Part shown: positions 277-62,804 of the stretch, piece by piece
Layout of the letters: each line of letters starts with the position of its first letter
Numbering within the stretch: the stretch's first letter is position 1
From: Tetradesmus obliquus
Taxonomy: Eukaryota; Chlorophyta; Chlorophyceae; Sphaeropleales; Scenedesmaceae
Assembly (NCBI GenBank): GCA_030272155.1
Contig: CP126197.1
Span: 1,488,001-1,552,000, forward strand
DNA: 64,000 nucleotides
Direction of reading: 5' to 3'
Notes under the pieces: generated by a model
What the model saw: the letters and a program-made list of their open reading frames with translations, nothing else
Databases searched by the model: none
What the model was told of the DNA's origin: nothing
Position numbers and translations under genes: made by a program

Positions 277-915
277 TCAGCCGCTGGTGGCAGGCAAGGT
301 CTGCGCTCCCACATTGCTGGCAGCAGCTGCCGGCACAGCTCCAATGCTGCTGCCAGCAGGAACGGTCACACTGCTGCTGCTGCCACTGCTGCCACTGGTG
401 CTGGCAGTGCTGCTGCTGCTGTTGCTGCTGCCAGCAGGGACGGCCGCACTGCTGCTGCTGCCGCTGCTGCCACTGGTGCTGGCAGTGCTGCCCCGGCCAG
501 CAGTATGGTTGCTTCCATGCACAGGATACCTCAGGCTAGCCGGCAGGCTCTGCAGCAGCTGCCGCAGCCGTGGCCGGCACTCGTGCTGCGACACACACCT
601 CACACCCACACCGCTCACAGGATCAAACACCTCGCTCACATTGAACCAGGCCCATCCCCAGGCCCCTGCGTAACCTGTCTGGTGCAAATGCAAGTAGTTT
701 GCGGGCTCTACAAGTGGGCCTTTTGGAGATGCAGAGGCCAGAACCTCGTTCCAGTGCTCACCCACAACCACTGGCTTGTCTAAGCACCAGTGGGACTTAG
801 GGTTTCGGAACATGTTGATGTCGATGTCGCGCTGTGGCTCGCCCCAAATGGGGTAGCCATGCACAGAATAGAAGTCCAGTACGCCCTGGGGGTCGCCTCC
901 AGCAGCGATCTGTGA

Positions 916-970
<55 letters not shown>

Positions 971-2825
971 GCAGCAGCAGCAGCAGCGGCGACGGCAGCG
1001 GCGGCGGCGGCAGCAGCAGCAGCGGCACGTCAGCAGGGCATCATAGCCATCACCAACACAAGTATAGCATGCATTGGGGGTCCCCTCCACCAGCAACCTG
1101 TGAGTGTGGCTGCGGCAGCAGCAGCAGGTGGAGCATATAATTGTGGCTGCTGCTTCACACTTGCGTTGGGAAGATTTCTACTGGTGTTTCACAGCACAGC
1201 CGCGCAGCAGCTTCTCACCAGCACGCTGTCCATGCAGAAGTTGCACGGCGCGCTGCCGCAGTCGCTGCAGCACTGATGCGTTGGAAGTTGGAAGTCGTCA
1301 CGACAGTTGTCACGATATGAGTCATATCATTGTGATCATTCTACTTGTAAGTGGTTATCACTAGAAACATGCCACCCTCACCAGCACGCTATCCTTCCAG
1401 TAATTGAACGGCGCGCTGCCGTAATCGCTGCGGCCTTCCTTCAAGTTGGGTATGGCCACATCGCTGTTGTAGGGCATGGAGTGCGCCCCTACAGTGACCT
1501 TGGTGCCTAGCGCTGCGCGCTTGATGGCGCCTGCTACCCTGTTGACAAAGCGCAGCAGCTTTGTGTGGGTGACCTGCAGAAGAACAAAGAAGATGGGCAA
1601 ACAAGATGGGCACACAGCCGTTTCCACTGGTGGTGTAGAAAAACAAGTGCGGCTAAGGGTGCATTGGTTGCCAGAACAGAGGTGTACTGGATCCTGGCGC
1701 TGCGCGCTTGATGGCGCCTGCCACCCTGCTGACAAAGCGCAGCAGCTTTGTGTGGGGCACCTGCAGGGCGAGAGGTCAGGCAAGTCATATTCATACAGCT
1801 CAGATCAGTCATCTCGGCAATGGAGGGCATCAGATTGAATTCACAGTTACGTGCAGATTGACCGTGCGTCAAGCCTGGTTCACAACACAAACTCTCACAC
1901 GGACTGGTTCTACTGCGACGCAGCCAAGGTGGCGCTGACAAGCCATGTATGCGCACAAGGCATCACAGTCTTGTGTACACTCTTGCTAGCTGCTGCTGCT
2001 GCTGCTGCTGCTCTTACCTGCTGGGTGGTCAGCAGCTTCAAGTCCGCAATCTGCCTCTTGAGGAAGTCCCACTCACTGGGGTAGTTGTCAATCACCTGCA
2101 GGGCATAATTGCACGCGTGGCAACAGTCACAACTACAAGGGGCTCGCCTTGCTGGGCGCAATGCTTGCTGCTACTGTTGCGCATTCCACAAGCTGCCAGG
2201 GCTTGCTCAAACCAACCACCACCACAACAGGAAACTGCCGTGCTGCCATAATATGTACCCCATCTCAGCTGCGCAATAGCTTGCAAACAAGGCTAACTCT
2301 GTCTGCAACAAATGATGGAGTTCCATAAAACCTCAAACCCTGCAGCCTCACATCGTGGTACATGAAGTTGTTGAACTCGCCATCATCTAGCGTGAAGTGC
2401 CAGCCCCTGTAGCGCGCAGTCAGGCCCCCTTTGCTGTCTTTGTGCAGCGATGCATTGCTGCTGCGGCTGGGCTGGCTCAGGCAGGGCCAGGACTTGGAGC
2501 CCCAGCTGTAACTGCCCCAGGACATGTTGTACTGGTAGTTCTGCATCAGACAGGCAGGAGGGCGCATGGCGGGGGCAGAGAAGCAGCAACAGCAGCAGCA
2601 GCAGCAGCAGCGTACACGTGGTAGTCACTGTTGTGCTGATAGGTCTGCGGGGGGGGGGGGGGGGGGGGGGCGAGGCGCATGGGTTGGCGCAGAGATGCAG
2701 CAGCAGCAGCAGCAGTGGCTAGGCTGGCTCAGGCAGGGCCAGGACTTGGAGCCCCAGCTGTAACTGCCGCACGACATGTTGTACTGGTAGTTCTGCAGGC
2801 AGGCAGGCGGGTGCATGGCGGGGGC

Positions 2826-2865
<40 letters not shown>

Positions 2866-2866
2866 C

Positions 2867-2920: not shown

Positions 2921-4991
2921 GTATCAGCGACTGCCTGGACATGCTCAGCAAGCCCCTGCATGCAACGGCACTCAGAACGTATAGTTGCACATAGTAAAGC
3001 AACACAATGTTTCACTGAAACCTCCTGGCAGGAGGCTGGCTGCAGGTGGGAAGGCTGCCACATGCTAGAATGTCAAAGAGCGCGCAGCACAGGCGCGTGA
3101 AACTACACCACTTGCACTACGTGCACGCACCGAGTGAATGCACACACCCTGCCGGAAATTCAGCTGCCCGCTCAACCACAATCCTACATCATCTCACACC
3201 TTGCAAAGCCGCCAGAAGTGTGACATGCCCTCCGGCTCACTCAGCACCTCAAATGCCAGCACAGCATTCAGGAACCTCGGACCACCCGGCACCACTGATC
3301 TCGGCAATGCTTCTGATCATTAGGCTTGTTGTGAGCGCGCGGCGCACCAAGATGTGTGCATGCCCCAAGATGTGTGCATGCCCCAAGATGTGTGCATGCC
3401 CCAAGATGTGTGCATGCACCAAGATGTGTGCATGCACCAACATGCCAGGTGCCAAAGTCACGACCAACATCAAGGTGAAGCGCACCTTGTACAGCCGCCA
3501 GAAGTGTGACATGCCCTCGGGCTCATTCAGCACCTCAAACGCCAGCACAGCATCAAGGAACCTCGGACCACCCGGCTGCATTCTTTCCTGCAAGCCCTTG
3601 ATCATCGGCAGTAGCGCATTGCCAATATAAGCATCTGTAGCTCTGTCATTACTCATCATGAGGATGGCTCGCGCGCGGTGCGGTTCAGGGTTGAGCCGCC
3701 GCACTGCCAGCACATCGTGTGACCAGAGGGAGATGCTCAACAGCAGGCCGTGCTGCTGGTAGGCTGTGGATAGTAGCCATTTGAGGTCTGTCATGAAGCC
3801 TGCGGGAAGGCCCAGCACCATGGGCTGGCCAGTGGCCTGCGGCATGCATTGCAGCGTCGGCACCGTTGTGGTTGTTCATGTGTAAGTCCATAGCTACAAA
3901 GGACTTGGCCAGCACGGTGCGCGCTGTCACTGTACACTACCTGAAAACCTGCTGTAGAGCATGCCACATGTGTGTAAAAGCAGCAAGTCTGGAGCAGCAA
4001 TGCACAGGCCAGCACAAGTACAGTCTCAATTGCTCCACCTTGGCAGCACAGCAAAGCCTGCCATGCATCACACCTGGTCATAGCCCCAACTCGGGCTCCT
4101 CCTGCCATCAATGTGCAGCCAGAACCGCACCGAGTTGGCCCCTGTTGCTGCTATCTCAGCAAGCGCCTGATCTAGCACACTGCGAAGCGCATCAGCAGTC
4201 AGGCCATAGGTGTTGCCCTCAAAAGGCAGGAACTGCACGTTGCCCAAGTTCACGCCTGTCAGGAATAGGTCGCGGCCGTTGTGCTGCAAGAAGCCGCCGG
4301 CAACACCCGGCAGACGGCTGCATACTGGCTGTGGGGCTGTGGCATTCAAGCCAGCTGGTAAGGCACGGGCTGGCTGTGGGGCTGATGTGGCGTTGAGGCC
4401 GACTGGTAGGGCAGTGCCTGCAGCGGCAGCAGCAACAACAGAGGCAGCAGCAACAACAGAGGCAGCAGCAACAGCAGCAGCAGCAGCGACAGCAGGTGTG
4501 GCAAGCTTGGTTTGCAGCAAGGGCTGGCTGTGGGGCTGATGTGGCGTTGAGGGCAGTTGGTAGGGCAGTGCCTGCGAGGGCAGCAGCAACAGCAGAAGTG
4601 TTTTACTCTGCAGCTGGAGGGTCGACACCGGCAAGACCTGAGATGCTCATGCACCTGCACCTGCAACCTGGGCCCCACACCATCATGGTCATGCCAGTTT
4701 GTTTGGTGTGCGGCAAAAGTTAGGAACGCAGCCAATACATCTCTGTTGATGTGCTGGCAAGCCTGCAACGTTGCAGTGCTCATGGTATGATGGGTGAAGA
4801 TTGGCAGCTGTCGGTGCGGCACATGAACTGCAGGCAGCAGTAAGTTGCATTGCAGCAAGTCCAATGTTCTGTCATGTCAAGCGCTGTATAACCTGGCGGA
4901 CAAGGCGGCCCTCACCTGCCGGAGTGACTGCCACACCAGCGGCGGCTGCGGGGGGTGTAACAGCTGCTGCTGCAGCTGCTGCTGGTGGTGG

Positions 4992-22600: not shown

Positions 22601-25600
22601 TAGCCTGCTTGCAAGCACTCGACTGTGATTCCCCTGTCAACAAAACATATCTTGAAGAGACCGGGCGGAGATGCTTCAAAGGTTGCAGCCAAGATAGGGT
22701 AGGGCCTGCATCACACCAGCAGTCGCACAGCTTGCAGACAAAATGACAAAATGACAAAACAAAACCCACCTCAGCGCTGCTATGAGAGAAGCAGAAAACC
22801 ACTGCAGATATCGCATATAGGTGCCATTGGCGCCTTGCTGGCAGTGCATGTTGCAGGCAACTACACACGGCTTCTTGCTTTCGCCAGGCACCCACCTCAG
22901 CACTGCTCTGGATGCTCTCCTGCCGCAGCTGCAGCTCCCGCACTTCAGCATCCGCCTGCTGCGCCTGCTGCTGCGCCAGCGCCAGCTGCTGCTCTGCTGC
23001 CCTTGTGGCTGCCAGCGCCGCGCCGCGCTGCTCGTCTGCCTGCTGCAGCTGCTGCCTGCAGTACTGCAGCTCCTGCCGGCAGCTGTCAAGCTCACGCTGC
23101 AGCTGCTCCGCTGCTGGCCCAGCCAGGCAGGCGCCTGTGCTGGGGACCTGCGTGTCAATTGAACATCAGCCAGAGCACATTGGTGCTGTCAGTCATGCTG
23201 TTGAGCAGGTACATGTGGGCAGGTGTGGCATGTACGTGCAGCCGCCTGTTTGTTGGTTGATGTGGAACCCGCCATGCATAAAGCAGTACACAATCAGCAC
23301 ACAAGCGTTGAGCACTGCTGTTATCATACCACAGGGCAAGGCAGCAAGCATTCGCGCACCTCCACAGCAGCCTGCTGGTGCTCAATCACGAGCTCCTGCT
23401 GCCGCCGCAGCTGCTGCAGCAGCTCAGCGTCCGTCAGCGCCGCAGTCAGCTGCTCGATCTCGTTTGTGGCAGCCTCTAGGGCCTGACCAGCAGCAGACAG
23501 CTTGCTGTCGGCCTCCTGCCGCTCTGCTGATAGCTGTGCCAGCTGCTGCTGCAGCTGGTGCACAGCAGAATGGGCCTCAGACTGCACGGCGGCTTCTGCA
23601 CGCTCATAGTTGATGGAGAGCATGTGCACCTGCAGCAGGTGAAAATGACGGCAGCAGCAGCAGCAGCAGCAGGAGAGCAGGCTTGGCGACAACTTTGTGT
23701 CTGTTCAACCGCAGCATCCCACAGGTGCAGATGTAGCTTCACACAGCTTGATGCAGTTGGGGTTGCAAAAGCTACGGCTACGTCGCTGCCGCAGCAACAG
23801 CAGAAGTAGCATCAGCAGCCACCTTCCCTTGCAGCCAGCGCTGGCACAACTTGCGCATGCCAAACATCACAAACAGCAGACCCACCTGCGCCAGCAGCTC
23901 CCGCACCCGCCCTGCCACTGCTTCCGCATCCACAGCAGTCACCAGCTTGGCAGACAGCAGCCGTCCAGTCAGCGCCTCATACCCCTCGGCATCCAGGCTG
24001 AACCCTGTGACGGCTGAACCCTTGCCCTGCTGGTCTCCCTTGAACCCTAGCGCTGCCGCGAGGTTGTGAGGGCTTAGCGCGGAGTGCACGCCTAGGAGTG
24101 CATCGCGGATGGAGTTGGCAGTGGCGGCTGCAGCGTCAAGGGCTTGATGGGCGTCGAGCAGCTCGTGCTGCTGCACAGCTAGCTGCTGCTGCTGGAACTC
24201 CTGCAGGGTGGAATGCACGACAAGTTGCCAGTGAGCAGTGGTTCAACTGGTAGGGTTCTTTGTGTATCATTGAAGCAAATGCAGTGAGCTGCAGCGCAGC
24301 GTATGCTGCCCTACTGATGCAGCTGCCACGGCAGTGACAAGAACCACTCAACCGCATGCATACGTATGACCCGCACAAAATCGCGCATGCTAGTCGTAAT
24401 ACATACATACACGCGCAACACTGGGCATATGCAGAACATCAAGCATGACATGTTGACGCCCCCGCACCTGCAGCTGCGCTGCCACGCTCTTCTCGCGCGC
24501 CTCCAGGCGCTGGCCCATCATGCCGATCGCGTCACGCATCTGGCTGACTTCTGCTTCAGCCACCTCCAGCTTTGCCTCAAGTTCACCTACAAATGCACCG
24601 CACACAGCATGGCAGCATTAGCACCACAGCCAGCACATCAGGTCGATGACGTGGCCATGTACAGCAGCTGCCTCTGCCCCCTCCAGCTTCAAGTTCACCT
24701 GCAAACCCACGCAGACAGCACAACGCAGGGTTGATAAGGCACGGGTCTAGTAGTTGGCTAGGTGCAGCATCAAGAAGTTAGCAGCTTGAGCACCCTAGCT
24801 TAGCCACCTCCAGCTCACCTGTGCGTCATGTGTGCAATACGTAACAATGGGGTGTGTGGACACCTTTCAATGAATGGTGCACTGTGCACAGCACAGAGGA
24901 GTGCATGGCTAAGTACAGCATGAAAAGAAAGTGAAGCACACACAGGACGGCGCTGCAATTGGTACATCACAGCGCACCTTTTGCCCTCTCGGCAGCAGCC
25001 AGTTGTGCTGTGAGTGACGCCTTGTCAGCGGCAGCCTGCACTGCAGCGGCACGCCCCTGCTCCAGCTCCTTCTGAAGCTCAGCCAGCTGCGTGGTCACCT
25101 TGAGCTGCAATTCCTGCATAACACACCAGTCAAAAATCACGAATACAAACAGTGTGTGCACGGCCTCCAACGGTGGAATGGAGTGGTGGTTGTCGCATGA
25201 GCGAGGCCAGAAGCAGCGCAAGTTGTTACACCATCAGTTGGAAGGCCGAAGCTCAGCAGGAAAGCAGCACTGACAGATCCTGAACAACAGCAGGGCACCT
25301 CTATGCCCTCACCTGCTTCTGATTGACAGACTCCATCAGCCGCTGGCTGAGCTGCTGCTGCTCAGCTTCATGCTGCTGCTTCAGCGCTGCCACCTCTTCT
25401 CGCAGCTGCTGCATCTCCTCTAGCTGCTGCTGCGCCTGCTGCAGCTGCTGCGCGGCCTGCTGCAGCTGCTGGTGCAGCGCGCGCCGCTTCTGCTGCTCCT
25501 GCTGTACCAGGGACTGCTGCTGCGCGCGGAACTCGGCGACGTCCATGGCTGCTGCCCGCAGCTGCTGCCTCTCCTGCTCAAGCACCTGCGGACGCAGAAC

Positions 25601-29063: not shown

Positions 29064-31799
29064 ATGGGGTGTGCTTGCTCCAAGAGCTTGCAGGAAGTCG
29101 ACCACGAGACCGCGCAAATCAGAGCTAGGCACTCCCCAGTGCCAGATAATGGTGGGTTTGCGTGCTACTGCTAAGCCTGCATGTCGCCCTGAACATATCC
29201 CCCGGGCGTCTTCTGCTTGCCTGCTAGCTCACCTGAAAGCGAGGCACTAGTCCAGTCATGTCACGTAGTCTTGATGTCATGACTATGGTGGTTGCTTGAG
29301 TGCAAGGACGGCTTGCAGCAGCGGGCTTGCAGGGCAGCTTTTCAATGTGCATGCACCTGCTTGCTGTTCACACACCCTCCTGCTGTTGCTCTCTCCTCCA
29401 AACCTTGAACACTTTCCTCATGCCTGATGCGCTGCAGGACCAACCAGTGCTGCCTTTCTGCAGCTTGCGAGCTTTCAGCCAACAGCAGCAGCAGTAGATA
29501 CCCGCTCCCGCCGGGCAAGCAGCGCGAGCAGCAATGCATCTGCCGCCCTTGGCACCAGCGGCAGCAGCACCGGCCTCTCCCCCTCTCAGTGGAAGCAGGT
29601 CCGCAGCCTGTTGCGGTCAAACACAAACCCTCACTATCATCAGATACAGCAGCTGCAGGTGCTACCTGCAAATCGGCTGCAGCAGGCGCAGCTTGATGCA
29701 GCGCAGCATTTGCGGCCAGACGCCCGTGATGCGCTGCATGAAGCCATAGCAGCAGCATCCACAGCAGCAGCCAACTCAGCCGCACAGCACCTGCACCGCC
29801 ATCGCCATCGCAGCAGCAGCAGCAGCCGCCGGCACCAGCGCGACCAGCTGCTCGTGCAGCAGCTGTCAGCTGGCGGCGGCCTTGCAGGAGGCTTCAGCAG
29901 CAGCAGCAGCAGCAGCACAAATGCACGGCAGCTGGCCTCACTGCATTCGGCTCCAGCTGGAGTTGGCTCGGTTGAAGCACCATCTGCGCTGCAGCCAATC
30001 AGCAGCAGCGGCAGCAGCAGCAGTACCCTGCAGCACTTGGGCCTCAGCAGCAGCCACAGCAGTAGAACTGGCCATGGCCCTGCAGCAGCAGATGCGCTCA
30101 CAGCAGGGCAGCTGCTGGCACTATGTGGGGCTGTGGTGCAGGAGGATGCCTCGCTAGCTGCTGCAGGCGTGCAGCCGCTGCTGCTGGCTTCTCTGTGTCT
30201 GATTGAAAGTGGCGGCTGCCCACATGCGCAGCAGTACAGGGACCACCTGGGGGATGTAGCGCTGGGGCTGTGCCAGGTGGGTTGGACGCTTGTTGTTTGG
30301 GGCGCTGTGGGGTGTGCTGTGGGGTGTTGCGGGGCGCTGTGGGGTGTGGCAGGGGGTTGTGCGGTGTTGCGGGGTGTTGTGGGGCGTTTTGGGTTGCCTG
30401 GCGCGCTGTGCAGTGGTGCTGGGACCACCTGGGGGATGTTGCTTTGGGGCTGTGCCAGGTGGGGTGGTGTTTGGGGCGCTATGGGGTGGTTTGGGACATT
30501 GTGGGGCGCTGTGGGGTGTGGCAGGGGGTTGTGCGGTGTTGCGGGGTGTTGGCGGCTGTTGTGGTTTGCCTGAGGCGCTGTGCAGTGGTGCTGGGACCAC
30601 CTGGGGGATGTTGCTCTGGGGCTGTGCCAGGTGGGTTGTTGTTTGGGGCGCTGTGGGGTGTTGCGGGTAGCAGTGACCCATGCTGTGGGTGGGGTGGGGT
30701 TTGTTGCCTTTGGCGCTGTGCGGTGGGGTTTGTTGCGCGGGGTGTTGTGGGGTGCTGTGGGGTGTGACAGGGGGGTCGTGGGGTGTTCCGGGGTGTTCCG
30801 GGGTGTTGCGGGGTGTTGGCGGGCGTTGCGGGGCGATGCGGGGTGTGGCAGCGGGGTCGTTGGGCGCTGTGGGGTGTTGTGGGTGCCAGCTGCACATACT
30901 GTGCATGACATGCCCAGCTTTTGCAGGACGTGCAGGACGCACAGATGGTTTACAGCAAGGAATTGGGTTGGCAGGGTGACATGTGCAATGCCTGTCCAGT
31001 CAGTTGTATGTGGACTGCTTTGCCATGCTTGCAAAGCACAGTCAGCGCGAGACTGGCGCAACAGGCGAAAGCTGTGCTCAGTTTCCCCCACCTGCTGCCT
31101 TCTTGCCATGATGCTCAGTGCTTACGCTGTCTGCCTGCCTTCTGCCTTCCTTTGTGTTACTGTTTTTGTGTCTGCTTCGCAGATGCTGCTATCAACAGCG
31201 CAGTGGCTGGCAGGCATCAAAGGCTTTGACCGCTATGGCAGCTGCCCCACAGCAGCAATCCTAGAGCAGCCAAAGGCCTGTGTATATTATGCAGCAGCAT
31301 ACCTCTCCATCCTAGCGCAGCACGACGGCTGCAGGCGCGGAGAGGCATTCATAGTTAAGGCTTACCATGCAGGGCCCAAAGGTGTAAACTCGGCAGCAGC
31401 AGCAGCATACTGGCAGAAGTATGCAAAGGCGCGCTACTGCATGCGCCAGGTTGCGCGCTGCATGGCTGATACGTTGGCAGCAGCTGCAGTGGCTGCTGGC
31501 CTGCCGCTGCAGCTGCAAGGAGACTGCTGCTCAGATGTGGTGAGCCAACAGCCAGGGCAGCAGCAGCAGCAGCAGTATGAGGGCAGAGGCAGCAGCACCC
31601 AAGAGCAGCAATCGGAGCTGCAGGTATGGGCGCGTGCAGCCAACTTGATAGCGGCTTTATCAAGCAGCTGGGGGTTGCAAAAAGCAGCTGCTGCTGCAGC
31701 TGGCCAGACGGCAGCAGAGGGGGCAGCTACTAGCAGTGCAGCCAGCCTCATGTTACACATCTTCCCGCATTGGTCCTCAAATAACAACAATAACAAAGC

Positions 31800-37919: not shown

Positions 37920-38099
37920 CTACTTCTTCTTGCCTCCACCCTTGCCCTCCTTGAGCTTGATGACCTCTCCCTCGTAGCGGATGCCCTTGCCCTTGTATGG
38001 CTCAGGGGCCCGCTGGCGCCTGATGTCTGCGCAGTACGCGCCCAGCGCCACCTTGTCTGCACCGCCGATGATGAGGACGGTGTTCTTCTCCACCTGGAT

Positions 38100-38166
<67 letters not shown>

Positions 38167-40023: not shown

Positions 40024-40245
40024 CTGCATAACACCATGATGCAATTGAGCTGCTGCTCAAGCGTCGATCGGCCCTGAGTGCGCTGCCATTGAGGCCTGAG
40101 GCTGTGGCCAAGCTGTCGGAAGGCTGTGCAGTGTCCTGGCTGCTGCTACTCGGTATGCTACTGCAACAGTTCCTTGCCAGCATGCTCTCTGCACCGCAGC
40201 CTGTGCAGTCTGCCTACCAGAACCAAGCCCACATGCGCTGCTGTA

Positions 40246-41070: not shown

Positions 41071-42144
41071 GCTTCACACTCGGCACTGGAACAGTGTGCT
41101 TGAGGAACTCGGCCCTGGAGCTCTGGCATGTATATATAATCTATCATGCTGCAGCTGCAGTGGTTGCGGTAGCTGCAAATGTCACATGCTGCAACAAGCC
41201 GCTGGCCACGTTTTGCTTATGTAACACACCAACTGTAGCTGGTGTGTAGACGCAAGATGTTGTGTAACATGAGGTGTTCCAGGACGTTGGGGTATGAGCA
41301 CCACACTTGGCACTGGAGCAGTGTGCCTAAGATACTCAATAGATGCCGCTCTGGCATAAGTGACTATGCTATATGCGTGCAGCTGCAGTTACCAAAGCTG
41401 CCTCACACCAAAGGGTTCGGACAGATGTCAGGCCACCTTTGTCCCGCAGCAGCACACCTGAACAACACAATGCACCTCCATGCCTGTCTTCCGTGCCAGA
41501 TGCGAGTGGCGGAGCCACGGGTAACTGCTAGTTGCTCGAGTGTCGGAACATCGCCTTCTTCAGCTCACTCTGGTGAGCTGCAGCACGTCAGCAGGTTGTC
41601 CACGGTATAAGGAGTTGCAGTAAAGGGTGCAACATGCATGCAGGTCAAACATTACAAGCACAATGCGACATACGTTGCAGTAGCAGCACGATGTAACATA
41701 ATGCACACTTTAATCAGATGGGGTGTGGCACAGCTGCTCTGTTTTTAGCAAGTGCTGAGATCTTTGTGAGGCACTCAGCAAACCAAACGCTTGATAAGAC
41801 TGTCGAGCCCCTGTACCAGTGCCTGCATACGTCATGTAAATGTTTGTTACCTTGGACTGCACATCACTTGCTTAACAACATATCCCGGTCAGCAACCCTC
41901 CCATCCTCGCCCGCCCAAACCGCCGACACCCAAGACCCGTGTCAACCCCAGCCGTCGCCGCTGCGTAAACAAAGAAAGACCAAAGCAGCCGCCACCAATG
42001 TAGCGCGCCAAACCACCCTGCGCTGCAGCCACACGCACCGGAAATGCCACAGCCGCAACAGCACCAGCACATACACATGCTGCCACCAACACTGTGCATT
42101 CCTGCAGTGCGCCGCATCTCCTGCCTCGCCTGCTGCTGCTGCAT

Positions 42145-42324
42145 CTACTTCTTCTTGCCTCCACCCTTGCCCTCCTTGAGCTTGATGACCTCTCCCTCGT
42201 AGCGGATGCCCTTGCCCTTGTATGGCTCAGGGGCCCGCTGGCGCCTGATGTCTGCGCAGTACGCGCCCAGCGCCACCTTGTCTGCACCGCCGATGATGAG
42301 GACGGTGTTCTTCTCCACCTGGAT

Positions 42325-42391
<67 letters not shown>

Positions 42392-46223: not shown

Positions 46224-48693
46224 CCGCCGCAGGATCAGCACAAGCTGTGCTGCATTAGATGCTCTGCTTGGCGGTGGTGGAGTGGCATGCGGCACAGTCA
46301 CAGAGTTCTGTAAGCAAGCAGCTTCTCGTGAGCATTGGCAGCAGCTTCCATGCACTGCTAAGACGTATAGCTGGCAGCACCCACAGGCACCACAGCGCAG
46401 TGTGCTGCTGCACAGCATCTGTGCATAGATGGATCTGTGTGTTCTTGTGTGTACATGCGCATGTGGCTTGCAGAAGATGCTCTTCAAAGATGCTGCCATA
46501 CTTGCTGTGTGTTTGGCTGTGCAGTTGGTGTGCCTGGAGTTGGAAAGACACAAGTGGGGTGAGCAGCTGAACGTATAAGCAGCAAGAGCAGGCATAGCGG
46601 GACGCACGCAGCTAGCTAAAAACTGCAGTATGGAACGCTGCCATATGCATGTTTGACTTGAATGCTTGTTGCCTGCATCCACATGAGCAAATCTGGCAAC
46701 TCTGCCAAGAGCAGCATCCGCGACTGTGCCCAAAACAACCAGCTTGGCAGCTGAATTTCCATCACTGTCAGTTCAGGTGGCAGTTGCCGAGTCCTCAGGG
46801 CTGCTGCTGCTGCTGCTGCTGCTGCGCTGCTGCTGCTGGTGGTGGCCTACAGGATGCAGCTGGTGGTAAATGTGCAGCTCCCACCATCACTTGGGGGACT
46901 GTCTTCACAGGCCATGTACATTGGTGAGCTGCCAAGCACTTGTAGCACACCAGCACTGCAGGCCTTGACATACGGCGAGCGCAGGCACCAGCCTAACAGT
47001 GTCAAAGATAGTACAGCACAGTGCAGCGCACCGGTACACAGCCTGCTGCTGGCACAACAGCTCGTGAGGAGTCAATGCTGCTGCAACAAGCAGCAGTAAT
47101 GCCATTAGTGCTGCTGCTAGTCGTGCTGTTGCTGCTGCTGGTGCTCTTGTGCCTGCCGCAGACACCGAAGGTTCTTTCATGACGGACCGGCTGATTGACA
47201 TGGCCATAGCAGCAGTCCAACGAGTACAGCAGCAACAGCAGAAACCGCCAGCAGCTGCGGAGCAGCAGGTGGGCGTTCCTTGATTGCAATCTCGCCACCA
47301 ACACATCTACCTCTGGATTTACCAGCGTTTAGCCGCTGATGCATAGCTGCATGTGGCCCGATTCAGTGAGGGTTTTAACATGGTGGACAGGAGGCTAGCA
47401 CTACAGCATGTCGTGACCAACACAGCTCTGATGCCTCTGCCCCTGCTGCTGCCACTATGTCTTCATCCTGCTGTCTCTAATATGCAGCAGCAGCAGCAGC
47501 AGCAGCAGCAGCCACCCTGCTCTGTGGAGTCGCTGCTGTCAGGCATCCTGCACTTCCGGGTGCAGCATCACATGCAGCAGCTGGCACTAGTGCGCTCACT
47601 GGACCTGCTGCTGCAGCAGCACCCACAGGTGGGCAGCAGCTACAGAAGCAGCAGCAGCAGCAGCAACAGCAGCAAGATGTCGATGTTTTGTGCAGCTGGC
47701 ATTGGTGCGGTCCCTGGACCTGCTGCTGCAGCAGCACCCACAGGTGGGCAGGCGACGCAACAGTGGAAGAGACGTGCACATGTCTGCAACGGCTGTAACA
47801 CCCTTGATTGTTCAACAGCTGAGCCGCAGCTGCTGTCACAACGCAGCCAGTACGACAGTCCAGACAGCAAGTATGCTACCCCGCCTCAAGTTAGCACCTG
47901 CAGAATCCATACTATGCTGCTATATCCTCAGAGATATACGGCCCTCAGGCACATTGCTTGCTGCGTCTCCTGCATCCGCTGCATTCTATGTGCTTGCTGC
48001 CAGGTGTCGCTGCTGGTGCTGGACAGTGCCATCTATCACTTCAGGCCGTCCCTGGGGCAGGCCATGCAAACGAGTAAATTGCACACCAACCCCTTTGCAT
48101 GAGAAGACTTTGTTGCGGAGATCTGATCTGATTAGGCGCACTGTCTGCTACATGTGCTGCTGCCAGGTGTCGCTGGTGGTGCTGGACAGTGCCACCTTCC
48201 ACTTCAGGCAGGCCTTCCCTGATGCCGGCCAGCGGGCGCGGCTGATGACAGCCATGGCGCAGCAGCTGGCTGCACTGGCTGAGCAGCACGGCGTGGCAGT
48301 GGTCATGATGAATCAGGTGGGCGAGTGTGCTTCACGTGCAATGATCATATGCCCAGATTATTCATGTATGTGCAGGGTGTGTCGTATTCACATGCATAGT
48401 CCGCATTGGCAGTTGCTGGCCTGATTTGCGTTGCGTTGCTGCCGTTTCCAACCGAGCTGCTGGCTGCGCTGCCTGCAGGTTGTCATGCGCATCGCTGACT
48501 CAGCGTCCAGCATCGCAGCAGCAGCCAAGAGCAGCAGCGGCCTGTCCTCTTCTTCAGCAGCATGGCTGGCTCCTGCGCTTGGTGAAGGGTGGGGCCAAGC
48601 AGCATCATGCAGAGTGGCGCTGTTTTGGGAGGGCAGCCAGCGCTATGCGCTTTTGAGCAAGGCAAAGGATGTGCCACTGCAGCAGCAGCAAAG

Positions 48694-54878: not shown

Positions 54879-57800
54879 CAAGCAGTAGAAGCAGCAGTGG
54901 CGGCGACTCCAAACTGCTTGCTGCACTTGCAGCGCATGCTGAGCCGCTCATCGAGTCAACTCCAGATCCTGGGGCACTGGTCAAACTTCTGCGTGGCTTT
55001 TTCACCTTGAACTTCACACCTGCTGATGCCTGGCTGGACCTGTTGCTGGATGAGGCAGCTGAGAAGATCAGTGTGCACAGCACGTCAGTGCGGCAGAAGT
55101 TCTATGCGAACAGCAGCAGCAGCAGCAGCAGCAGAAGTGACAGTGAAGGCGTCCGTAGCATGCTGCTAGACAGCAGCAGCGGCTCTGCCATAGGCCCAGC
55201 TGGCAGCGGTGCCGGCAGCAGCAGTGTCGACAGCAGTAGCAGCAGCAGCAGCTGGGTGGATGCATCTGCTGACGAAGAGCAGCAGCAAGCAGAAGATGGA
55301 GAGCCGTGGCTGCTGCAGGCTGGATCCTTTCAGCCTGGCAGAAACATAAACCTTGCACGCAGGAGCTTAGAGTCCAGCTGGCAGTTGCAGTCCAAGGTTA
55401 ACGGTAACAACCGCAGCAACGGCGCAGGCAGCAGCAGCAGCAGCAATGGCAAGGGCATAGACCAGCAGTCATTACTCAGCAACAGCAGCAGTAGTTTGGC
55501 GGCAGGCTGGGGTAGCAGTGGTGCGGCTGTGCCTCTTGCTGCTGGTGGCACGGCTCCCGGAGCTGCAGTGGGGGTGCAGTCACTTGCAGCAAGCAGTGTG
55601 GTGGTGGGTCAGGTGCTGGGTCTGCTGTCTGTTGTTGAAGCCATGAAACTACCTGTTGAGCAAAGCTGGGTGGCAGACGTGATGCGGTCGCTGCAGGTGG
55701 GCGCACGCGTGCATGTGTGGTTTCTGCTAGCATTGCCTGTGTGCTTGTGCATGAATGTTGCTGGTACTGAGCAGTGTTGATGCTGTTGAGCAGCTCAGCC
55801 GCACTAGAGTCAAGTCTGGCAATGCTGTACTTGCTGACTGCTGGACATTTGCTGGTCCAATGCTTCACTTGCATGCCAAACACACGTGTAGCGTGTCAGC
55901 ATCCTTTTCCACACAAGCTGCACTGTGCTCTGCTGCGGCGGCACATACCATAAACCACAGACCTGCTGCAGGGCCACTGACACATTGTGCGCGAGCTGCA
56001 GCAGCTGTATGCTGTAGTGCTGGCTGTGCTGCTGCACAATCCACCCAACACTGCTGTTGTGCTGCTCATGCTCATGCTGCTGCAGGGCCACTGCCGTGTG
56101 GTGGACCTGCCTGAGCTGCAACAGCTGCTAGCGCTGCTGGAGTCGTACGGGCCCCAGGTGCTGGAGCCGGAGGGCGTGGATGAGCTGCTGGTGCAGGTGG
56201 GGTTGTTGGGCTTCAGCTGTTGTGCTTACTCCGTATGATCGTAGCTCACAATTTGCTTCTCTAGCACCGTGGCATGCTGTCACACTCTGTTCGTGCTAAG
56301 GCAGCTGGGCACGTGCTGCTGGTGTGCACAACCCACTGCATCATGGTGCATTGCCACAGCGGAGTAATGCTCGTCTCACCCTTTCTAACTGCATTCCACA
56401 TCACACATATGAAGAGCGTTCGTCTGCTCGCAATTGCTGCTGTGCTGCCGACATCTTACAGTGCCACGTCAATGTACAGTCAAGTACAGCAGGCTGACGC
56501 CTCAGGACATGCTGTGCCTGGTGGGGTTGGTGCCAACACCACATATATCTGTGTCCCTCTGCTCGCATTCTCTGCTGTGTTGCCGACCTGTCTTGCAGTG
56601 CCACGTCAACTACAGCAGGCTCACGCCTCAGGACATGCTGCGGCTGCTGGGGTTGCTGGCGGGCAGCCAGACGCGCCCCAACAACATATGGTGGCAGGGC
56701 TTCCTGTCTACGCTTCAGGTGCGGATCAGACCAGCTAGTGTGCTACCGTGATGCTGGCTGGCGGGCTGGCCATCATGATGTCGCTAACAAAACGCGTAAC
56801 CGACCGCAACCGGCCTTAGCATCAGCTGCGCATGCCAAGCCACATGCCGCTGCCACTTACCCTGCTGCTGTGCTGCTTGGGCCTGCAGATGCAGTTGCCA
56901 GTGCTCACTCCCGCGCAACTGGTTATCGCACTGGCCAGCATGTGTGAGATGGGTGGGCGGCCGCCACAGGCCTGGCTGGCGTCACACGAGACAGCGCTGC
57001 TCAACACGAACTCTCGCGCGCCATCGGATGAGGCGCTCAGCCCAAAGGTACGTGCATGTTGTTGTACATGCGCATCCGCTGTTGTCTGTTCTGTGGTACT
57101 TGCCTTGGCCTGATGGTGTTATGACTTCAGATGTGCACAGTACCCTATCGGGCCTGCTTGCAGCTCGCCTCACTCATGCAGCAACGTCCGCGCCCCACTG
57201 CAGTGACTGCAGAGGCCTCACACCCATCGTACCGCTGTCAACTGTGCTGCACAATGCAACTACGTGCACGGTGTGGTGCCCTGCAGGGCTGGCTGCTGGC
57301 TGCTGCTGCTGGAGTGCTACAGCTGGTTGATGTACCGCCCCTGTACTGCACTGCTTCACTGTGCTTCAGGGCTGGCTGCTGCTGTTGGAGTGCTACAGCC
57401 AGCTGATGTACCGCCCCACAGCTGACTTTGAGGGTGCGCTGGAGCGCTATTGCCTGGGTGTACTGCCTGGGCTTGGGCCTCAGGCCCTTGCTAGCTTGGT
57501 GAGCAGCGCGGCTCGGCTGCAGCTGCCGCTGAGCCCGCAGCTGGAGGATGCCATCATAACACGGCTGGAGCAGGTGAGGCATGCAATGATCTGCTGAGCT
57601 CAGCTACAGTGCAGCCCTTGTTCCGATGATTTTGCAAGCACTGGTGTTTGCATGTGCGATTGTTGCTATGAGCATGCTGAAGCGCACATGAGCATGTGCA
57701 TGTTCTTTGCCTGTGGTTCGAACTGTCTGTGCGCTGTGTGGTTGCTTCAAGCTATGTATGCATGTGTGTACACGTGCGTGTGTGCGTGCGCATGCGCGTG

Positions 57801-58663
57801 TGCGTGTGGGCTTGTGCATGCGGCGCGCGCGTGTGTGCGAGTGTGTGCAACGCGCGCGCGTATATGTGTGTGCTTGCGCGCGCTAGTGTTCGTGTCCGCG
57901 TGTTGGGCTTGTGCGCGTGCACCGGCATGTGTGCGTGTGTGTGTGTGGGCTTGTGTGAGCGTTGGCGCGCATATGTTGATACGCGCACATTTGTGTGGCC
58001 TTGTGTGTGTGCTGGCATGTGTGGGCTTGTGTACGTGTGCGCGTGTGGGTTTGTGTGCTTGCGCACACGTTTGTGGGCTTGTGTGCGTGCGTGTGCGTGC
58101 GTGTGCGTGTGTGTGCAAGCGTGTGCGGCGCGCGCACGTGTGCGTGCATGTGCCGGGCGCGCGCGTGCGCATGTGCGTGCGTGTGCGGCGAGCGCGCACG
58201 CGTTTGTGCAAGTGTGTGCGGCGCCGCGCACGTGCGTATGTGCGTGTGCCTGCGGCGCGCGTGTGTGGGCTTGTTTGAGTGTGCGCACGTGTCGGCTTGT
58301 GTGTGCATGCGCGTGCATGTGGGCTTTTGTGCGCGCGTGTGTGCGTGTGCGTGCGCGCGTATGGGCTTGTGTGCGTGTGCGTGCTCGCGTGTGGGCTTGT
58401 GTGCGCGCGCACGCGCGTGTGTGGACGTGTGTGCTTGCGCGCGTGGGCGTGTGTTTGTATGTGCATGCGCGCGCGCTTGCGGGCTTATGTGTGTGTACGT
58501 GCGCATGCGCATGCTTGTGCGTTGTGCATGTGTGCGCGTCACGCACTGTGCGGCCTACTGTGCGCATGCGCGCGCGTGCTTTCGCGTGTGCGTGTGAGTG
58601 TGTGTACGCGTGACGCGCACGTGGGCTTATGTGTGCTTGCGCACGCATATGGGCTTGTGTGTG

Positions 58664-58728
<65 letters not shown>

Positions 58729-61700
58729 GCGCGCCTGCTCTCGTGTGTATGTGCGCGCGCGCCTGCTCTCATGTGTATGTGCGCGCACATATGTATGTGC
58801 GTGTGCGTGTGGGCTTGTGTGCGTACATGCGCGTGTGTGCATATGTGCGTATGTGCGTGCGCGTGCGCGGGTGTGCATTTGTTTGTGTGTGATTCGGTGC
58901 GTGCACGCGTGTGCGCGTGTTTGAGGCCGTGTGCATGGGTGTGCAACACTGTGGCTGTGTGCGCGGGTGGGGGGTGTTTTGTGTGCTGACTCATGCATTC
59001 ATGCACCTATATGTTCTTCTGAGCGTGAATGCACACGTGCCTGCTGGTGTGTGCATATCTATGTGTGTGCGAGCCTTCCAACGCGGCGCGAGCGCATGCT
59101 CGCGTGAGTGTGATTCTGCATTGGCGTGTGTGATTGTGGATGTGCATGTGCACGCATGTGTGCGCGCTCGCATAAGCTCATGTGTTTGTGCATCCGCGCA
59201 GGCATGTGCATGCATGCGTGCACGCGGGCGTGTGCTTGTATGTGGTGGCATGCTTGTGCACGCATGCGGGCGTGCTGGCGCTTGTGCAATCATGTGGGCG
59301 CCCGTGTGTGCACGTGTGTGTGCTTGTGCATCTGCGGCACATGTTTCTGCACGCGTGTGTCCGTGGTGTGTGCGCGCGCCCATGTGTCTGCCGGGCGTGT
59401 GCGCGCATACATGTGTGTGCATGCACGCGCCCATGCGTGTGTGCGCGTGGGTGCGTTTGTGCATGTGCGCGTGCGTACCTGGGTACGCACTTGTGTGGTT
59501 TTGCATTTGTACTTTGTTCATGTGTTGCGCGTGCGCACGCCAAGTGTGCACGCGTGCATGTGTGTTGTGTGTGCATGTCATGGAGACATTGCTCTACCAG
59601 GCCAGTGTCTCAGCTGTGCTACAGCGCGGATGCATACTCGTCTAAGCATGCATGCACACACGCGTGTTCCTGTGCGGGCATGCTTGTCGTGCGCGCCTGT
59701 GTGTCTCATCGTACATGTGTGGATGTGGTTTTGTATGCGTGCTTGCGTGCCCGCTCGTGTGTTCTTGTAGTGTACATGCGCACAGGTGCGCGTGTACGTA
59801 TGTATCGCGCTGTGCATGCGTAGGTGTGTGCGCTTGTGTGCGCGTGCGTGATAGCGCGTGTATTGCACATGCGTGCTTGGTCTGCATGCGTGTGTTTGTC
59901 CGCACACATGTGTGCTTCTGCCTGCATGATTGCGGCGCGTGAGCAGGCGGCCGGCCATCCTTGGGCGCGGGTACAAGGTTGGGTACGCTTTAGACCATGG
60001 AGTTGACAAGGTACCCTATATGCTTTCGATTGTTGTGGTCATGGCAACAAACATGCTGCAACAGTCACATAAGCGAAGCTCTGGGGACACAGCTGTTGCG
60101 CACCACAGCCTACCCCATGCAACATTCTCTGTCTGCTGCTGCCTGCTGCTGTACCCAGGTGCTGCCTCGCGCTACTTCAGAGGAGCTTCAACAGCTGGTG
60201 CAAGGGTTGCTGCTGCTGGATGCACAGGTACCTGTCACCGATGATTGCAGCATGCCGTTGGCAACAGGTGTTCTTGCAGTGCATCTTCATGAATATCGAC
60301 TGCGCTCACCAGGCTGTGGCTATAAGTTTGCGATTGCTGCACTATGCAAGCGTGTGCTGCTGTTTGGTCTGCGGCATATGCGCATGTTGTTGTTTGCACG
60401 GCTTCAAGTCAGACAGCAAGTAGCTACAGCCATGGATGCTGCTGTTCAGCCAGAGGGCCAACTGATGCATTTGCTGCTGCCGCCGCCGCCGCCGTCCGCT
60501 GTTGCAGCTGCCGTCGTCCTGCTTGCACTGCCTGTGTGAGGTGGCTCGGCCCCACCTGGCGACGTTCAACCCCAGCGCTACATGCAGCTTGCTGCAGGTA
60601 ACTTTCCTAATCTCTGGCGGCCGGAATGTTGTTGGTATTGGGCATGTGTGTTGTGTGGCGTTTAACGCCAGTGCATCTGTGCTTGCTGAAGTGTTCACAT
60701 TACAGAGCACACAAACTCTTGCTGCCATCCTTGCGTGTATGCGCGTGCATCCTTGGCAGTGTAAAGGGACGCAGGCACCCTGTGCCTTCAATACAACGCG
60801 CGTTTGCTGTGGGATTGCTTGAACCTTCAGTTGTATTGTGCTGCCACACTTTCCACTTCATATGACCTGCAGCTGCTGGCTATAGCTGGGGACTCCCCGG
60901 CATCGCCAGGATGGCTGGAGGCCGCCTTATCAGCGCTGCAGCCGCAACTGCCCACCCTGGAAGCCCTCGCAGCGCTACTGCTGCTGCAGAGCCTCAAAGC
61001 CTTCAGGGCCCAGCCGCCAGCAGACTTCATGGCAGGCCTGCAGCAGCGGCTGCTGCGGCTGGTGCACAAGTTTGATGCCATGGGCGTGGCAACGATGCTA
61101 GAGGGGCTGGTGGCGGCTGGGGCCCCGCCGGGTGATGAGCTGCAGGCGGTGCTGGCAGCACACATCAAGAAAGGGCTCGCGCGGCCTAGCCAGGTGGGGC
61201 GCAATATCACAGCTTCACGCCTTCTATCAGATCTTTGCTAATGCTGCATACATCAAGCCATCCACTGCAAGCATGCAAGCATGAAGTGTTTATCGCAGTG
61301 TGCACAATGTGCCTCAGCCAGCAGGCGGTTCAAAAGGTGGTGAGGAACAGAGCCACACAACTTGCATGAGCCAGGACTTGCACGCTGTGCATGCTCAGCG
61401 CATGCAACTGTGACTTCTCTTCTTCATGATCACGCAACTGCTTATATGCACTGTTGCTGCTGCTGTTGTGTGGTTCAACTACAGGGCATGGGCGCCACGC
61501 CGGTGTGGCTGTGCCTGGAGTCCCTGCTGGCAATGCAGCAGCCGCCAGCCACACCGCTGCTGCTTGATGAGCTTCTGCACCAAGTTTCCCAGCAGCTGCA
61601 CCGCAAGGGCACAGCCAGCAGCAGCAAGATGGCGCAAACCCTGCTGCCGCAGCTCGCTGCTGCTGTGACCACCGGCGGGGTTTGGGGTTCAAGATCTGGC

Positions 61701-62804
61701 TATACTCCAAGCCCGGGGTTGTGCAGTGCACTGTGTGGTGCGATGCTAGAAGATCCAGGGAGGCTGCCCTCACTGCTTTGGCTGGATTTGCTGGTGCGGT
61801 TCAGTGACCTGGCAGCTGGCAGCTCTGGTTTAGGGTTCAGACCTAGTGAGGCGTGGTGCAGGGCTGCGTCTCAGCAAGTGGTGGCTGGCTGGGGGCAGCA
61901 GCAGTGGGCTGGAGCTCCACCAGCGCAGCTTGCTGCATTACTAATGGCGCTTGGGAAGCTGCGGCATGTGCCTGGGCATTTGCCTGGCTGGCCTGACCAA
62001 GCACTGCAGCAGCTGTCGGTTGTTATGCAGAGGATGGACGGGCATCAGTTGTCAGTTGCGTTGTTAGGGGTCGCTCAGCAGCAGGCAATGACAGAGATGG
62101 TTGTCGCTGCAGCGGACGCTGCAGCAATACAAGGCAGTGGCGGCATGCTCGGCAGCAGCCACTCCATCAGCAGCATGAGCAGCAGCAGCAGCAGTACAAG
62201 CTTCACCAGTGCCAGCGGCACAGACAGCAGCAGGGATGAAACGTCCAGCAGCAGCAGCAGCAGCAGCCTGCAAGGCTTCGTAGCTGTGAGGCCGCAGCTG
62301 TTGGCAGCAGCAGAAGCTGCCAGCTTTGCTCAGCTGCAATCTATGGAGGGCCCTGATTTGGCAGTGCTGGGCCATGCATTGCAACAGCTAGGGGCCAGCC
62401 CACCACCGCAATGGATCGCTGCTTGGTCTGCAGCAGCAGCAGCGCAGCTCCCGGGTATGTCAGGCCAGGCAGGTGTGCTGCTGCTGTCTGCTGCAGCAGC
62501 CTTCCAGTCGCGGCCAGATGCAGCATGGCTGCAGCTGGTGCTGCAACACTGCCAGCAGCACCTGCCAGCACTGCAGCTGCAGGAACTGGTTGCACTGGCT
62601 AGGTCTTTGCAGCTGCTAGGGTACAGGCTAGATGAGGGTGTGGCGATGCGGCTGGCGAGGGCAGGGCAGGCAAGGGCAGCAGCAGCAACAACATTAGGGC
62701 TGGATGGGGCAGGGAGGGGTCTTGGTGAGGAGGGGTGGGAGGCGGCAGCTAAGCAGCGTGCTTGCTTGGAGCTTCAGCAGGTCTTGGCTCGCATAGCTAG
62801 CTAG
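52570..62804 (+). CDS. OPR-like helical repeat protein, probable organelle RNA-binding
   Basis: Twelve exons, 52570-53193, 53503-53625, 53937-54071, 54377-55696, 56086-56196, 56599-56718, 56889-57047, 57370-57573, 60159-60227, 60508-60597, 60873-61193 and 61485-62804, give 1531 aa; every intron is phase 0. The product is built from about 38-residue helical repeats such as ELALISYALQRWGCKPPNTW, LALLGYQPSA and ALQQLGASPPPQWIAAW. The PPPxW signature is that of octotricopeptide (OPR) proteins, which in green algae mostly act on single chloroplast or mitochondrial mRNAs. No RAP or nuclease domain is seen at the C-terminus. Ser-rich inserts interrupt the repeats in exons 4 and 12. The ATG at 52570 is the first in frame; the N-terminus could hold a targeting sequence. 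Four exon starts have intronic copies. The RNA target is unknown. Confidence 0.8.
54277..54312 (+). repeat. Intronic copy of OPR exon 4 5' end
   Basis: Shares gccgcacttgcctag with 54376-54390 at an offset of 99 bp, followed by weaker similarity into exon 4. It lies in intron 3. Confidence 0.65.
55963..56025 (+). repeat. Intronic copy of OPR exon 5 5' end
   Basis: Shares ctgctgcagggccactg exactly with the exon 5 acceptor region at 56077-56093, offset 114 bp, then about 40 bp of weaker similarity. The acceptor-like CAG is preserved. Confidence 0.7.
56433..56530 (+). repeat. Intronic copy of OPR exon 6 5' end and acceptor
   Basis: Nearly 100 bp resembling 56567-56664, covering the pyrimidine tract, the CAG acceptor and the first about 60 bp of exon 6, at an offset of about 135 bp. 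A small insertion in the copy shifts its frame. Confidence 0.85.
57286..57345 (+). repeat. Intronic copy of OPR exon 8 5' end
   Basis: About 60 bp matching the exon 8 start at 57367-57417 (GWLLLLECY region), including a TGCAG acceptor. The copy has a small insertion of Leu/Ala-type codons and lies about 80 bp upstream. Confidence 0.85.
57640..59940 (+). repeat. GT/GC-rich simple-sequence tract in OPR intron 8
   Basis: About 2.3 kb of nearly uninterrupted alternating purine-pyrimidine sequence (gtgtgcgtgcgcgtg type) fills most of the 2585-bp intron 8. It includes a pure GTGC array of about 15-17 units near 58664-58728. Such sequence can adopt Z-DNA. Long open frames across it on both strands are by-products of the repeat. 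Confidence 0.9.

What the first reader, a model, noticed from the sequence alone, without database searches (positions are those of the whole stretch)
277..62804. Recurrent inward duplication of splice junctions across unrelated genes
At least 14 exon-intron junctions in five genes have a second, partly decayed copy inside the adjacent intron, in the same orientation and about 75-290 bp away. Each copy spans the splice site, with exon and intron sequence. They occur at donors (GH5 exons 3 and 6; LysM exon 2 twice; RAD51C exon 7; two in the giant gene) and at acceptors (GH5 exons 2, 4 and 6; RAD51C exon 8; OPR exons 4, 5, 6 and 8; one in the giant gene). Such density suggests a high rate of short local tandem duplication in this genome. 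A neutral reading is survivorship: a duplication across a splice site can be spliced out, while one inside an exon cannot. A functional reading is redundancy or alternative splice sites. Either way the introns carry sequence derived from their own flanking exons, which also bears on intron growth.
Basis: partly seen in the sequence, partly recalled or inferred. Interest (0 to 1): 0.9.

Follow-up and report, generated by a model that had tools for sequence, protein, structure and literature searches.

The report
Exon-edge repeats inside algal introns
In the stretches examined of this alga-like genome, about one tested splice junction in seven has extra copies of the exon's edge inside the neighbouring intron, typically about 125 bases away, and the exon-derived part of a copy stays close to the working exon even where its intron-derived part has become unrecognisable, which ordinary duplication and decay do not predict.

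Summary
Real, and wider than the window. In 314 kb of this genome 77 of 572 tested exon edges have a same-strand copy in their own adjacent intron; controls gave 0 (shuffled), 1 (reverse complement) and 2 (unrelated intron) of 572, and 0 of 170 mid-exon pieces. Copy junctions keep a preferred distance: 61 of 75 nearest copies lie 99-163 bp away. Tandem units of period 95-165, at least 80% identical, span an exon/intron boundary in 17 of 18 cases, none intron-only; this beats one null clearly and a length-matched one only marginally (P 2e-5 and 0.03). The main surprise is decoupling: exon halves are about 91% identical whether or not the intron half of the same unit is still recognisable (rho 0.10, n=73; my neutral simulation 0.79). 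Best reading: tandem duplication across splice junctions, then exon-limited refreshing of the copies from the live exon. The refreshing is inferred and its template unknown. Constraint on the copies, exon-only copying at birth, plain survivorship and an assembly or polishing artefact remain open. Homologous RAD51C and PDH-E1 alpha proteins lack the copies.

The parts
1377..1434 (-). GH5-type gene: exon edge at donor (junction 1381/1382)
   Evidence: donor ..GTGCTG|GTGAG
1214..1271 (-). intronic copy of that donor edge, 163 bp downstream in the gene
   Evidence: 84% over 58 nt
1506..1579 (-). GH5-type gene: exon start at acceptor (junction 1573/1574)
1693..1766 (-). intronic copy of that acceptor edge, 187 bp upstream in the gene
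   Evidence: 93% over 74 nt; intron half not found again past the copy
2457..2611 (-). GH5-type gene: exon start plus about 55 nt of intron at acceptor
2709..2860 (-). intronic copy of that acceptor edge, 252 bp away
   Evidence: 91% over 155 nt including CTG repeats
3483..3576 (-). GH5-type gene: end of the exon that encodes ..AFEVLNEPEG.., donor AAG|GTG
3197..3290 (-). intronic copy of that donor edge, 286 bp away
   Evidence: 93% over 94 nt, ends 3 nt into the intron; a genome search with this piece gives these two places only
4363..4442 (-). GH5-type gene: exon start at acceptor ..CAG|GCACTG
4517..4596 (-). intronic copy of that acceptor edge, 154 bp away
   Evidence: 89% over 80 nt
30225..30276 (+).
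30407..30660 (+). two junction copies, copy junctions 182 and 354 bp into the intron, inside a G-rich tandem array
47577..47636 (+). RAD51C: exon edge at donor (47628/47629)
   Evidence: homologues run on without the copy
47692..47751 (+). intronic copy of that donor edge, 115 bp away
   Evidence: 93% over 60 nt
48152..48231 (+). RAD51C: exon start at acceptor ..CTGCCAG|GTGTCG
47988..48064 (+). intronic copy of that acceptor edge, about 163 bp away
   Evidence: 84% over 81 nt
56558..56658 (+).
56423..56532 (+). intronic copy, 126-135 bp away
   Evidence: 78% over 112 nt
57371..57417 (+). OPR gene: exon start at acceptor ..TTCAG|GGCTGG
57295..57341 (+). intronic copy, 76 bp away
   Evidence: 91% over 47 nt
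62764..62804 (+). exon edge in the same predicted gene (predicted exon ends at 62780)
62840..62880 (+). copy, 76 bp away
   Evidence: 85% over 41 nt
24551..24609 (-). giant gene: exon start at acceptor (24586/24587)
   Evidence: weak
24668..24720 (-). weak intronic copy, 112-117 bp away
   Evidence: 78%, E 1.6e-4; score 32

Best explanation
Introns of this Scenedesmaceae-like alga grow by tandem duplication of segments of about 95-165 bp (mode 110-130) that straddle a splice junction, roughly 50-60 nt of exon edge plus 70-80 nt of intron, sometimes repeated into arrays. The copies lie in the intron and are, on this reading, spliced out and neutral as protein. Afterwards the two halves of a unit part company: intron halves drift apart, while exon halves of the copies stay about 90% like the live exon whatever the state of the intron half. 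I read this as repeated, exon-limited refreshing of the copies from the live exon, by conversion templated either by the chromosomal exon or by its spliced transcript. Shown: the copies, their preferred spacing and the decoupling of the two halves. Suggested but not settled: a preference for boundary-spanning units. Inferred: that refreshing happens, and its template.
For: 77 of 572 junctions with a copy against 0, 1 and 2 of 572 and 0 of 170 in controls. Preferred spacing. 17 of 18 tandem units of period 95-165 span a boundary and none is intron-only (nulls). Exon-half identity 0.908, 0.921, 0.922 and 0.908 in units with none, weak, mid and strong intron-half similarity (36, 17, 12 and 8 units); rho 0.10, p 0.42; 36 of 73 units have no intron half left, against 9% in a neutral simulation of 400 units with rho 0.79. 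The 42 units whose copy is not predicted as exon agree (rho 0.17, p 0.27; 24 of 42 without intron half). Adjacent copy-copy comparisons, both intronic: 25 of 46 have no detectable intron-half homology at 12.6% exon-half divergence, a level at which simulated intron halves are all detected (60 per setting); the 21 others show 7.3% against 14.5%. 38 of 73 nearest units do show the intron half again past the copy, which supports a tandem origin for those. In 22 units with clear intron-half homology identity steps from 0.97 (last 10 exon nt) to 0.79 (intron nt 11-20) at the junction; that set was chosen for exon half at least 0.93.
Against: No conversion event was seen directly, and there are no RNA or raw DNA reads. 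When units are ascertained on the intron half instead, the two halves are equally diverged (0.898 against 0.876, the 16 of 38 with a recognisable exon half), so young units show no asymmetry. Against length-matched random stretches the lack of intron-only units is marginal (P 0.03), and below 80% identity two intron-only arrays of period 143 and 158 exist. Spacing is not always near 125: 8 of 96 gapped pairs have offsets under 90. Differences between two intronic copies are skewed to third codon positions (0.082, 0.090, 0.173) and stops are few (6 in 2456 codons), which could mean constraint rather than refreshing. There is no clear 3' bias of copies along genes (12/132, 21/153, 23/150, 21/137 by quarter), against a simple reverse-transcription route. 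Gene models come from my own HMM without RNA support.
Confidence: 0.38

Rival explanations
1. Neutral survivorship: tandem duplications fall at random; those in exons are purged and those spanning junctions or in introns survive and decay.
For: Donors and acceptors are hit equally (37 and 40). Copies carry frame-shifting indels (19 of 135). About half of the units are recognisable tandem duplications (38 of 73). Exon-to-copy pairs decay more slowly than intron-to-intron pairs, which biases detection towards exon edges. Against stretches as long as the arrays, finding 17 of 17 genic units on a boundary has P about 0.03.
Against: Exon-half identity does not fall with intron-half decay. Simulated neutral decay leaves 9% of units without an intron half, against 49% observed. 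No intron-only unit among 18 tandem units of period 95-165 (P about 2e-5 against random 125-nt units).
Confidence: 0.18
2. Functional constraint: the exon-derived halves in introns are kept by selection, as decoy or alternative splice sites, exon-definition elements or occasional cassette exons.
For: Copies keep good sites: GT in 28 of 31 donor copies, AG in 22 of 24 acceptor copies. Third-position skew and few stops. My gene finder calls some copies exons (for example 47696-47743).
Against: Inner ends show little excess of the opposite splice site (above 7 bits in 23% and 12%, against 16% and 7% at random places). RAD51C of a relative has no insert at its two junctions; PDH-E1 alpha 1ni4 has nothing matching the copies. 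19 of 135 copies are frame-shifted. Third positions of copies are themselves far more similar than the intron halves, which coding constraint alone does not explain.
Confidence: 0.2
3. Exon-only copying at birth: repair by template switching inserts a piece of exon edge, cut near the splice site, into the intron, so that half of the units never had a homologous intron half.
For: 11 of 18 nearest units with exon half at least 95% identical show no significant intron half past the copy. Homology often ends 2-9 nt past the junction even at 93-100% identity. Units without an intron half come from junctions with fewer copies (mean 1.56 against 2.3-2.5 for clear tandem units).
Against: Units without an intron half have about the same spacing as the others (median 125.5 against 134). 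DNA copying has no evident reason to stop at splice sites.
Confidence: 0.14
4. Assembly or polishing artefact: divergent haplotypes joined locally, or consensus correction with RNA reads that makes exon-like stretches in introns look like the exon.
For: A Scenedesmus relative is likely diploid with separated haplotypes (PMC7955037, passages). Differences between exon and copy show third-position skew, as between homologous alleles. No raw reads can be checked here.
Against: 107 gapped pairs in 314 kb, on both contigs sampled, many in arrays (up to six copies found, where my search stopped) with regular spacing, in an assembly of 17 contigs.
Confidence: 0.1

Closest known systems
Intron gain by tandem duplication of a coding stretch with a proto-splice site (PMC2891723, passages seen; potato RdRp case PMC4974935, listing and start of abstract)
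   Same: Local tandem duplication of exon sequence with splice-site motifs; one copy becomes intronic and the protein is restored by splicing.
   Different: Here existing introns are lengthened. Units straddle an old junction, occur in arrays, and the exon halves stay conserved while the intron halves drift.
Short tandem duplications by patch-mediated double-strand break repair, as described in rice (Vaughn and Bennetzen; recalled, not read)
   Same: Abundant short local tandem duplications, sometimes with a spacer.
   Different: Sharp 110-130 bp preference and decoupled halves at splice junctions; neither is a feature I recall from that work.
RNA-templated double-strand break repair (PMC12065846, abstract and outline seen)
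   Same: Copying limited to spliced exon sequence would stop at splice junctions, as the high identity does here.
   Different: Its known genomic scar is whole-intron deletion, which I did not look for. Here exon pieces inside introns would be overwritten. Only a model here.
Introners and introner-like elements (recalled)
   Same: Recurrent intron change by short insertions of roughly 100-200 bp in algae.
   Different: No repeat family seen: 16 of 574 predicted introns have any match more than 20 kb away in the 314 kb sample.

Membership tests
Plain neutral tandem duplication | Similar stretch as long as the offset (both halves of the unit duplicated) | tested here: inconclusive
   38 of 73 nearest units show the intron half again past the copy; 35 do not
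Plain neutral tandem duplication | Both halves of a unit decay together | tested here: not met
   rho 0.10 against 0.79 in simulation; rho 0.17 in the 42 units with copies not predicted as exon
Plain neutral tandem duplication | Units also found wholly inside introns | tested here: inconclusive
   0 of 18 for period 95-165, id at least 80%, P 2e-5 or 0.03 by null; at other periods 1 of 8; below 80% identity two, periods 143 and 158
Intron gain by tandem duplication | The two copies bound a new intron whose length equals the offset | tested here: not met
   In the cases looked at copies lie inside larger introns: GH5-type intron 1574-2017, RAD51C intron 47629-48166
Introner-like elements | Inserted sequence belongs to a dispersed family | tested here: not met
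   16 of 574 introns with a far match; one spacer-bearing stretch searched genome-wide gives only itself; the RAD51C spacer is CAG-rich and matches simple repeats, so it says nothing
Duplicated cassette or mutually exclusive exons | Each copy has both an acceptor and a donor | tested here: not met
   Opposite site above 7 bits near the inner end in 23% of donor-type and 12% of acceptor-type copies, against 16% and 7% at random
Duplicated cassette or mutually exclusive exons | Copies appear in the protein | tested here: inconclusive
   Homologues lack them for RAD51C and PDH-E1 alpha; the alga's own mRNA was not available
RNA-templated repair | Copied tract ends at the splice junction | tested here: inconclusive
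   Step at the junction, but heterology-limited DNA conversion would also stop there
RNA-templated repair | Reverse transcription of transcript; exact intron losses | not tested
   Needs related genomes and reads

The most novel reading that the evidence does not exclude
Spliced transcripts act as repair templates often enough that exon-like pieces lying in introns are repeatedly overwritten up to the splice junction and no further. The intronic exon-edge copies would then be natural recorders of RNA-to-DNA information flow in an alga, and the same process would silently correct the live exons.
Probability: 0.13. Interest if true: 0.95.

Novelty: new variant of a known kind. Interest (0 to 1): 0.72.

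Why it matters
If right, it shows a route of intron growth at splice junctions with a preferred unit length, and a way in which sequence exchange respects exon boundaries that DNA itself does not mark. Because each unit carries an exon half and an intron half of the same birth date, the many units that such a genome should hold would make exon-limited exchange measurable. It also warns gene finders: copies with good splice sites are easily mis-annotated as exons, as my own HMM did.

Tried and rejected
Simple tandem duplication with later decay of introns: rejected as the whole story by the decoupling of halves, though about half of the units are recognisable tandem duplications. An early impression that nearly all copies are exon-only was wrong: a wider search of the intron half recovered homology in 38 of 73. 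An early impression of a 7-fold rate contrast came from choosing units with well-kept exon halves; copy-copy pairs with a detectable intron half show 2-fold. The claim that duplication is confined to boundaries was weakened by a length-matched null run while checking this report (P 0.03 instead of 2e-5); I lowered the best explanation from 0.40 to 0.38 and exon-only copying from 0.15 to 0.14, and raised survivorship from 0.15 to 0.18 for it. Genome searches for spacers: one search found only itself; (3.5 kb) found matches outside itself to two stretches of the query only (about 131-214 and 2589-2787), not assigned; one search is dominated by CAG-type repeats. Mini-exons: little excess of opposite splice sites. 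A 3' bias that would point to reverse transcription: not clear. Pfam did not recognise the GH5-type protein, but it matches solved endo-mannanases (E 4.8e-20). Paper searches (open-licence PubMed Central only, listings and starts of abstracts seen) listed no report of junction-straddling repeat arrays of this kind; a Sphaeropleales comparison (PMC12571836) holds neither 'intron' nor 'tandem' nor 'exon' in its text, and the stwintron paper PMC8469720 was seen in passages only.
Full report
WHERE IT IS. The window is G000:C7:1488001-1552000 of a 104.66 Mb, 17-contig genome. The nearest relative found for its RAD51C protein is from Scenedesmus sp. NREL 46B-D3, 79% identical over 99% of the query, so I take it to be a scenedesmacean green alga (inference). 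I added 200 kb of flanks and 50 kb of contig C1. Coordinates outside 1-64000 below are relative to the window start.

GENE MODELS. I trained a two-strand gene HMM on the 314 kb (last round 50 genes, 574 introns, median intron 197 bp; commonest donors GTGA and GTGC, acceptors TGCAG|G). Independent checks: the RAD51C exons give a protein that aligns without gap to the Scenedesmus protein (97% over 87 aa) and straight across the junction to solved RAD51C chains. The C1 gene with three copy-bearing junctions is PDH-E1 alpha; in the alignment to 1ni4 two of the junctions are crossed without gap, and at the third (donor 10727) the solved chain lacks seven residues just past the junction, which come from the next exon and are not the copy. 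Serinc and short-chain dehydrogenase genes with copies are recognised by Pfam. The GH5-type gene matches solved endo-mannanases. The models are still ab initio and small exons are unreliable.

THE OBSERVATION. Local self-comparison finds 200 pairs in 264 kb and 22 in the C1 sample. Exon edges of 60 nt (exons of at least 75 nt, genes with at least three of them) were then compared with their own adjacent intron, up to 700 nt: 77 of 572 score 50 or more; reverse complement 1 of 572; shuffled intron 0 of 572; unrelated intron 2 of 572; mid-exon 0 of 170 (edges of the same exons 19 of 170); far edge of the same exon 1 of 280. In the 346 introns long enough, edges give 70, the intron stretch next to the junction 25 and a deeper intron stretch 26. 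Donors and acceptors are alike (37 and 40), in 22 of 36 genes. Density varies: 48 of 175 junctions left of the window, 6 of 148 in it, 13 of 161 right of it, 10 of 88 on C1.

ANATOMY. 135 of 147 copies reach to within 12 nt of the junction. The nearest copy junction is 99-163 bp from the real one in 61 of 75 cases; of 135 successive spacings in this set 62 lie at 110-130 and none under 90. The looser BLAST set does hold shorter ones: 8 of 96 gapped pairs have offsets under 90, among them two in the window at 76. For nearest copies up to 190 bp away, donors have 50 (sd 12) nt of exon and 81 (20) nt of spacer (n=31); acceptors 59 (15) and 70 (22) (n=34). Exon and spacer parts are negatively correlated (-0.42), so the sum is the preferred quantity. 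Small exon parts are under-detected, so the apparent centring on the junction is only partly established. Arrays are shown; for example near -99068 the exon edge and two copies are identical over 44-45 nt, while the intron half of the nearer copy differs by about 20% and that of the farther one is not recognisable.

HOW FAR IT GOES BEYOND SURVIVORSHIP IN PLACEMENT. Among full tandem units at least 80% identical, period 95-165, one per 300 bp kept, 17 span an exon/intron boundary, 1 is intergenic and 0 are intron-only. At other periods up to 450 there are 8 units: 5 spanning (three of them with only 3-9% exon), 1 intron-only, 1 exon-only, 1 intergenic. Below 80% identity intron-only arrays of period 143 and 158 are seen. 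Random 125-nt units are 34% spanning and 31% intron-only, which makes 17 of 17 improbable (P about 2e-5, and the same with detected repeats collapsed); random stretches as long as the arrays are 61% spanning and 14% intron-only, which makes it only marginal (P about 0.03). Copies predicted as exons could inflate the spanning class.

THE TWO HALVES. In 73 nearest units the intron half is found again past the copy in 38 (p at most 0.03) and not in 35. Exon-half identity is 0.908, 0.921, 0.922 and 0.908 in units with none, weak, mid and strong intron-half similarity (36, 17, 12, 8 units); rho 0.10, p 0.42. A neutral simulation of my own (400 units; ages uniform, copy and introns neutral, third positions of the exon at 0.7 of the neutral rate, indels 12% of substitutions, ascertained on the exon half) gives rho 0.79 and 9% without an intron half, against 49% (36 of 73) observed. 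Leaving out copies predicted as exons (42 units) gives rho 0.17 and 24 without an intron half. Between two adjacent intronic copies, where both halves should be neutral and equally old, 25 of 46 have no detectable intron-half homology at 12.6% exon-half divergence, and the other 21 show 7.3% against 14.5%. Against this, units ascertained on the intron half show equal halves (0.898 and 0.876; the 16 of 38 with a recognisable exon half), so the asymmetry is absent in the young. Over all copies the intron halves keep a residual in-register similarity (0.49-0.56 in four 20-nt blocks against 0.39-0.41 in controls).

WHAT THE COPIES ARE LIKE. GT is kept in 28 of 31 donor copies and AG in 22 of 24 acceptor copies. 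Indels against the exon occur in 25 of 135 copies, frame-shifting in 19; 6 stops in 2456 codons. Exon-to-copy differences by codon position are 0.069, 0.052 and 0.164 (65 pairs); copy-to-copy 0.082, 0.090 and 0.173. Neutral single changes would give nonsynonymous to synonymous 2.7; observed 136 to 170 over all pairs and 82 to 83 for copies not predicted as exon. With a constrained exon and a neutral copy I would expect about 1.5 (my estimate), so some constraint, or refreshing from an evolving exon, or faster third-position mutation is needed. Inner ends show little excess of opposite splice sites.

MECHANISM. Shown: duplications of exon edges into the adjacent intron with a preferred unit, and exon halves whose similarity is decoupled from the intron halves. 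Inferred: the exon halves are refreshed from the live exon. A chromosomal template would stop where homology ends; a spliced-transcript template would stop at the junction by nature. RNA-templated repair is reported in human cells (PMC12065846, abstract and outline). Absence of a clear 3' bias is against a simple cDNA route. Why duplication prefers about 125 bp is unexplained; I have no mechanism for that which I would defend.

VERDICT. Nearest known kind: short tandem duplication and intron gain by tandem duplication (PMC2891723, passages); this differs in lengthening old introns and in the behaviour of the exon halves.

Noticed in passing
35938-40151 and 40163-44376: A 4,214-bp stretch is repeated in tandem with 100% identity, 11 bp between the copies; very recent duplication or assembly duplication.
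   Followed up: partly
C7 1388001-1488000 (100 kb left of the window): Junction repeats are much denser there (48 of 175 tested junctions) than in the window (6 of 148).
   Followed up: partly
C7 1444644-1445431 (-43356..-42569): An 82-bp repeat, 99.6% identical over 706 nt, lies almost wholly within a predicted coding exon.
   Followed up: no
57992-58858: Long stretch of GTGTGC-type low-complexity repeats inside a predicted intron.
   Followed up: no
47696-47743: The RAD51C donor copy is bounded by AG and GT and is 48 nt long, so gene finders may call it an exon, as mine did; the relative's protein lacks it.
   Followed up: yes
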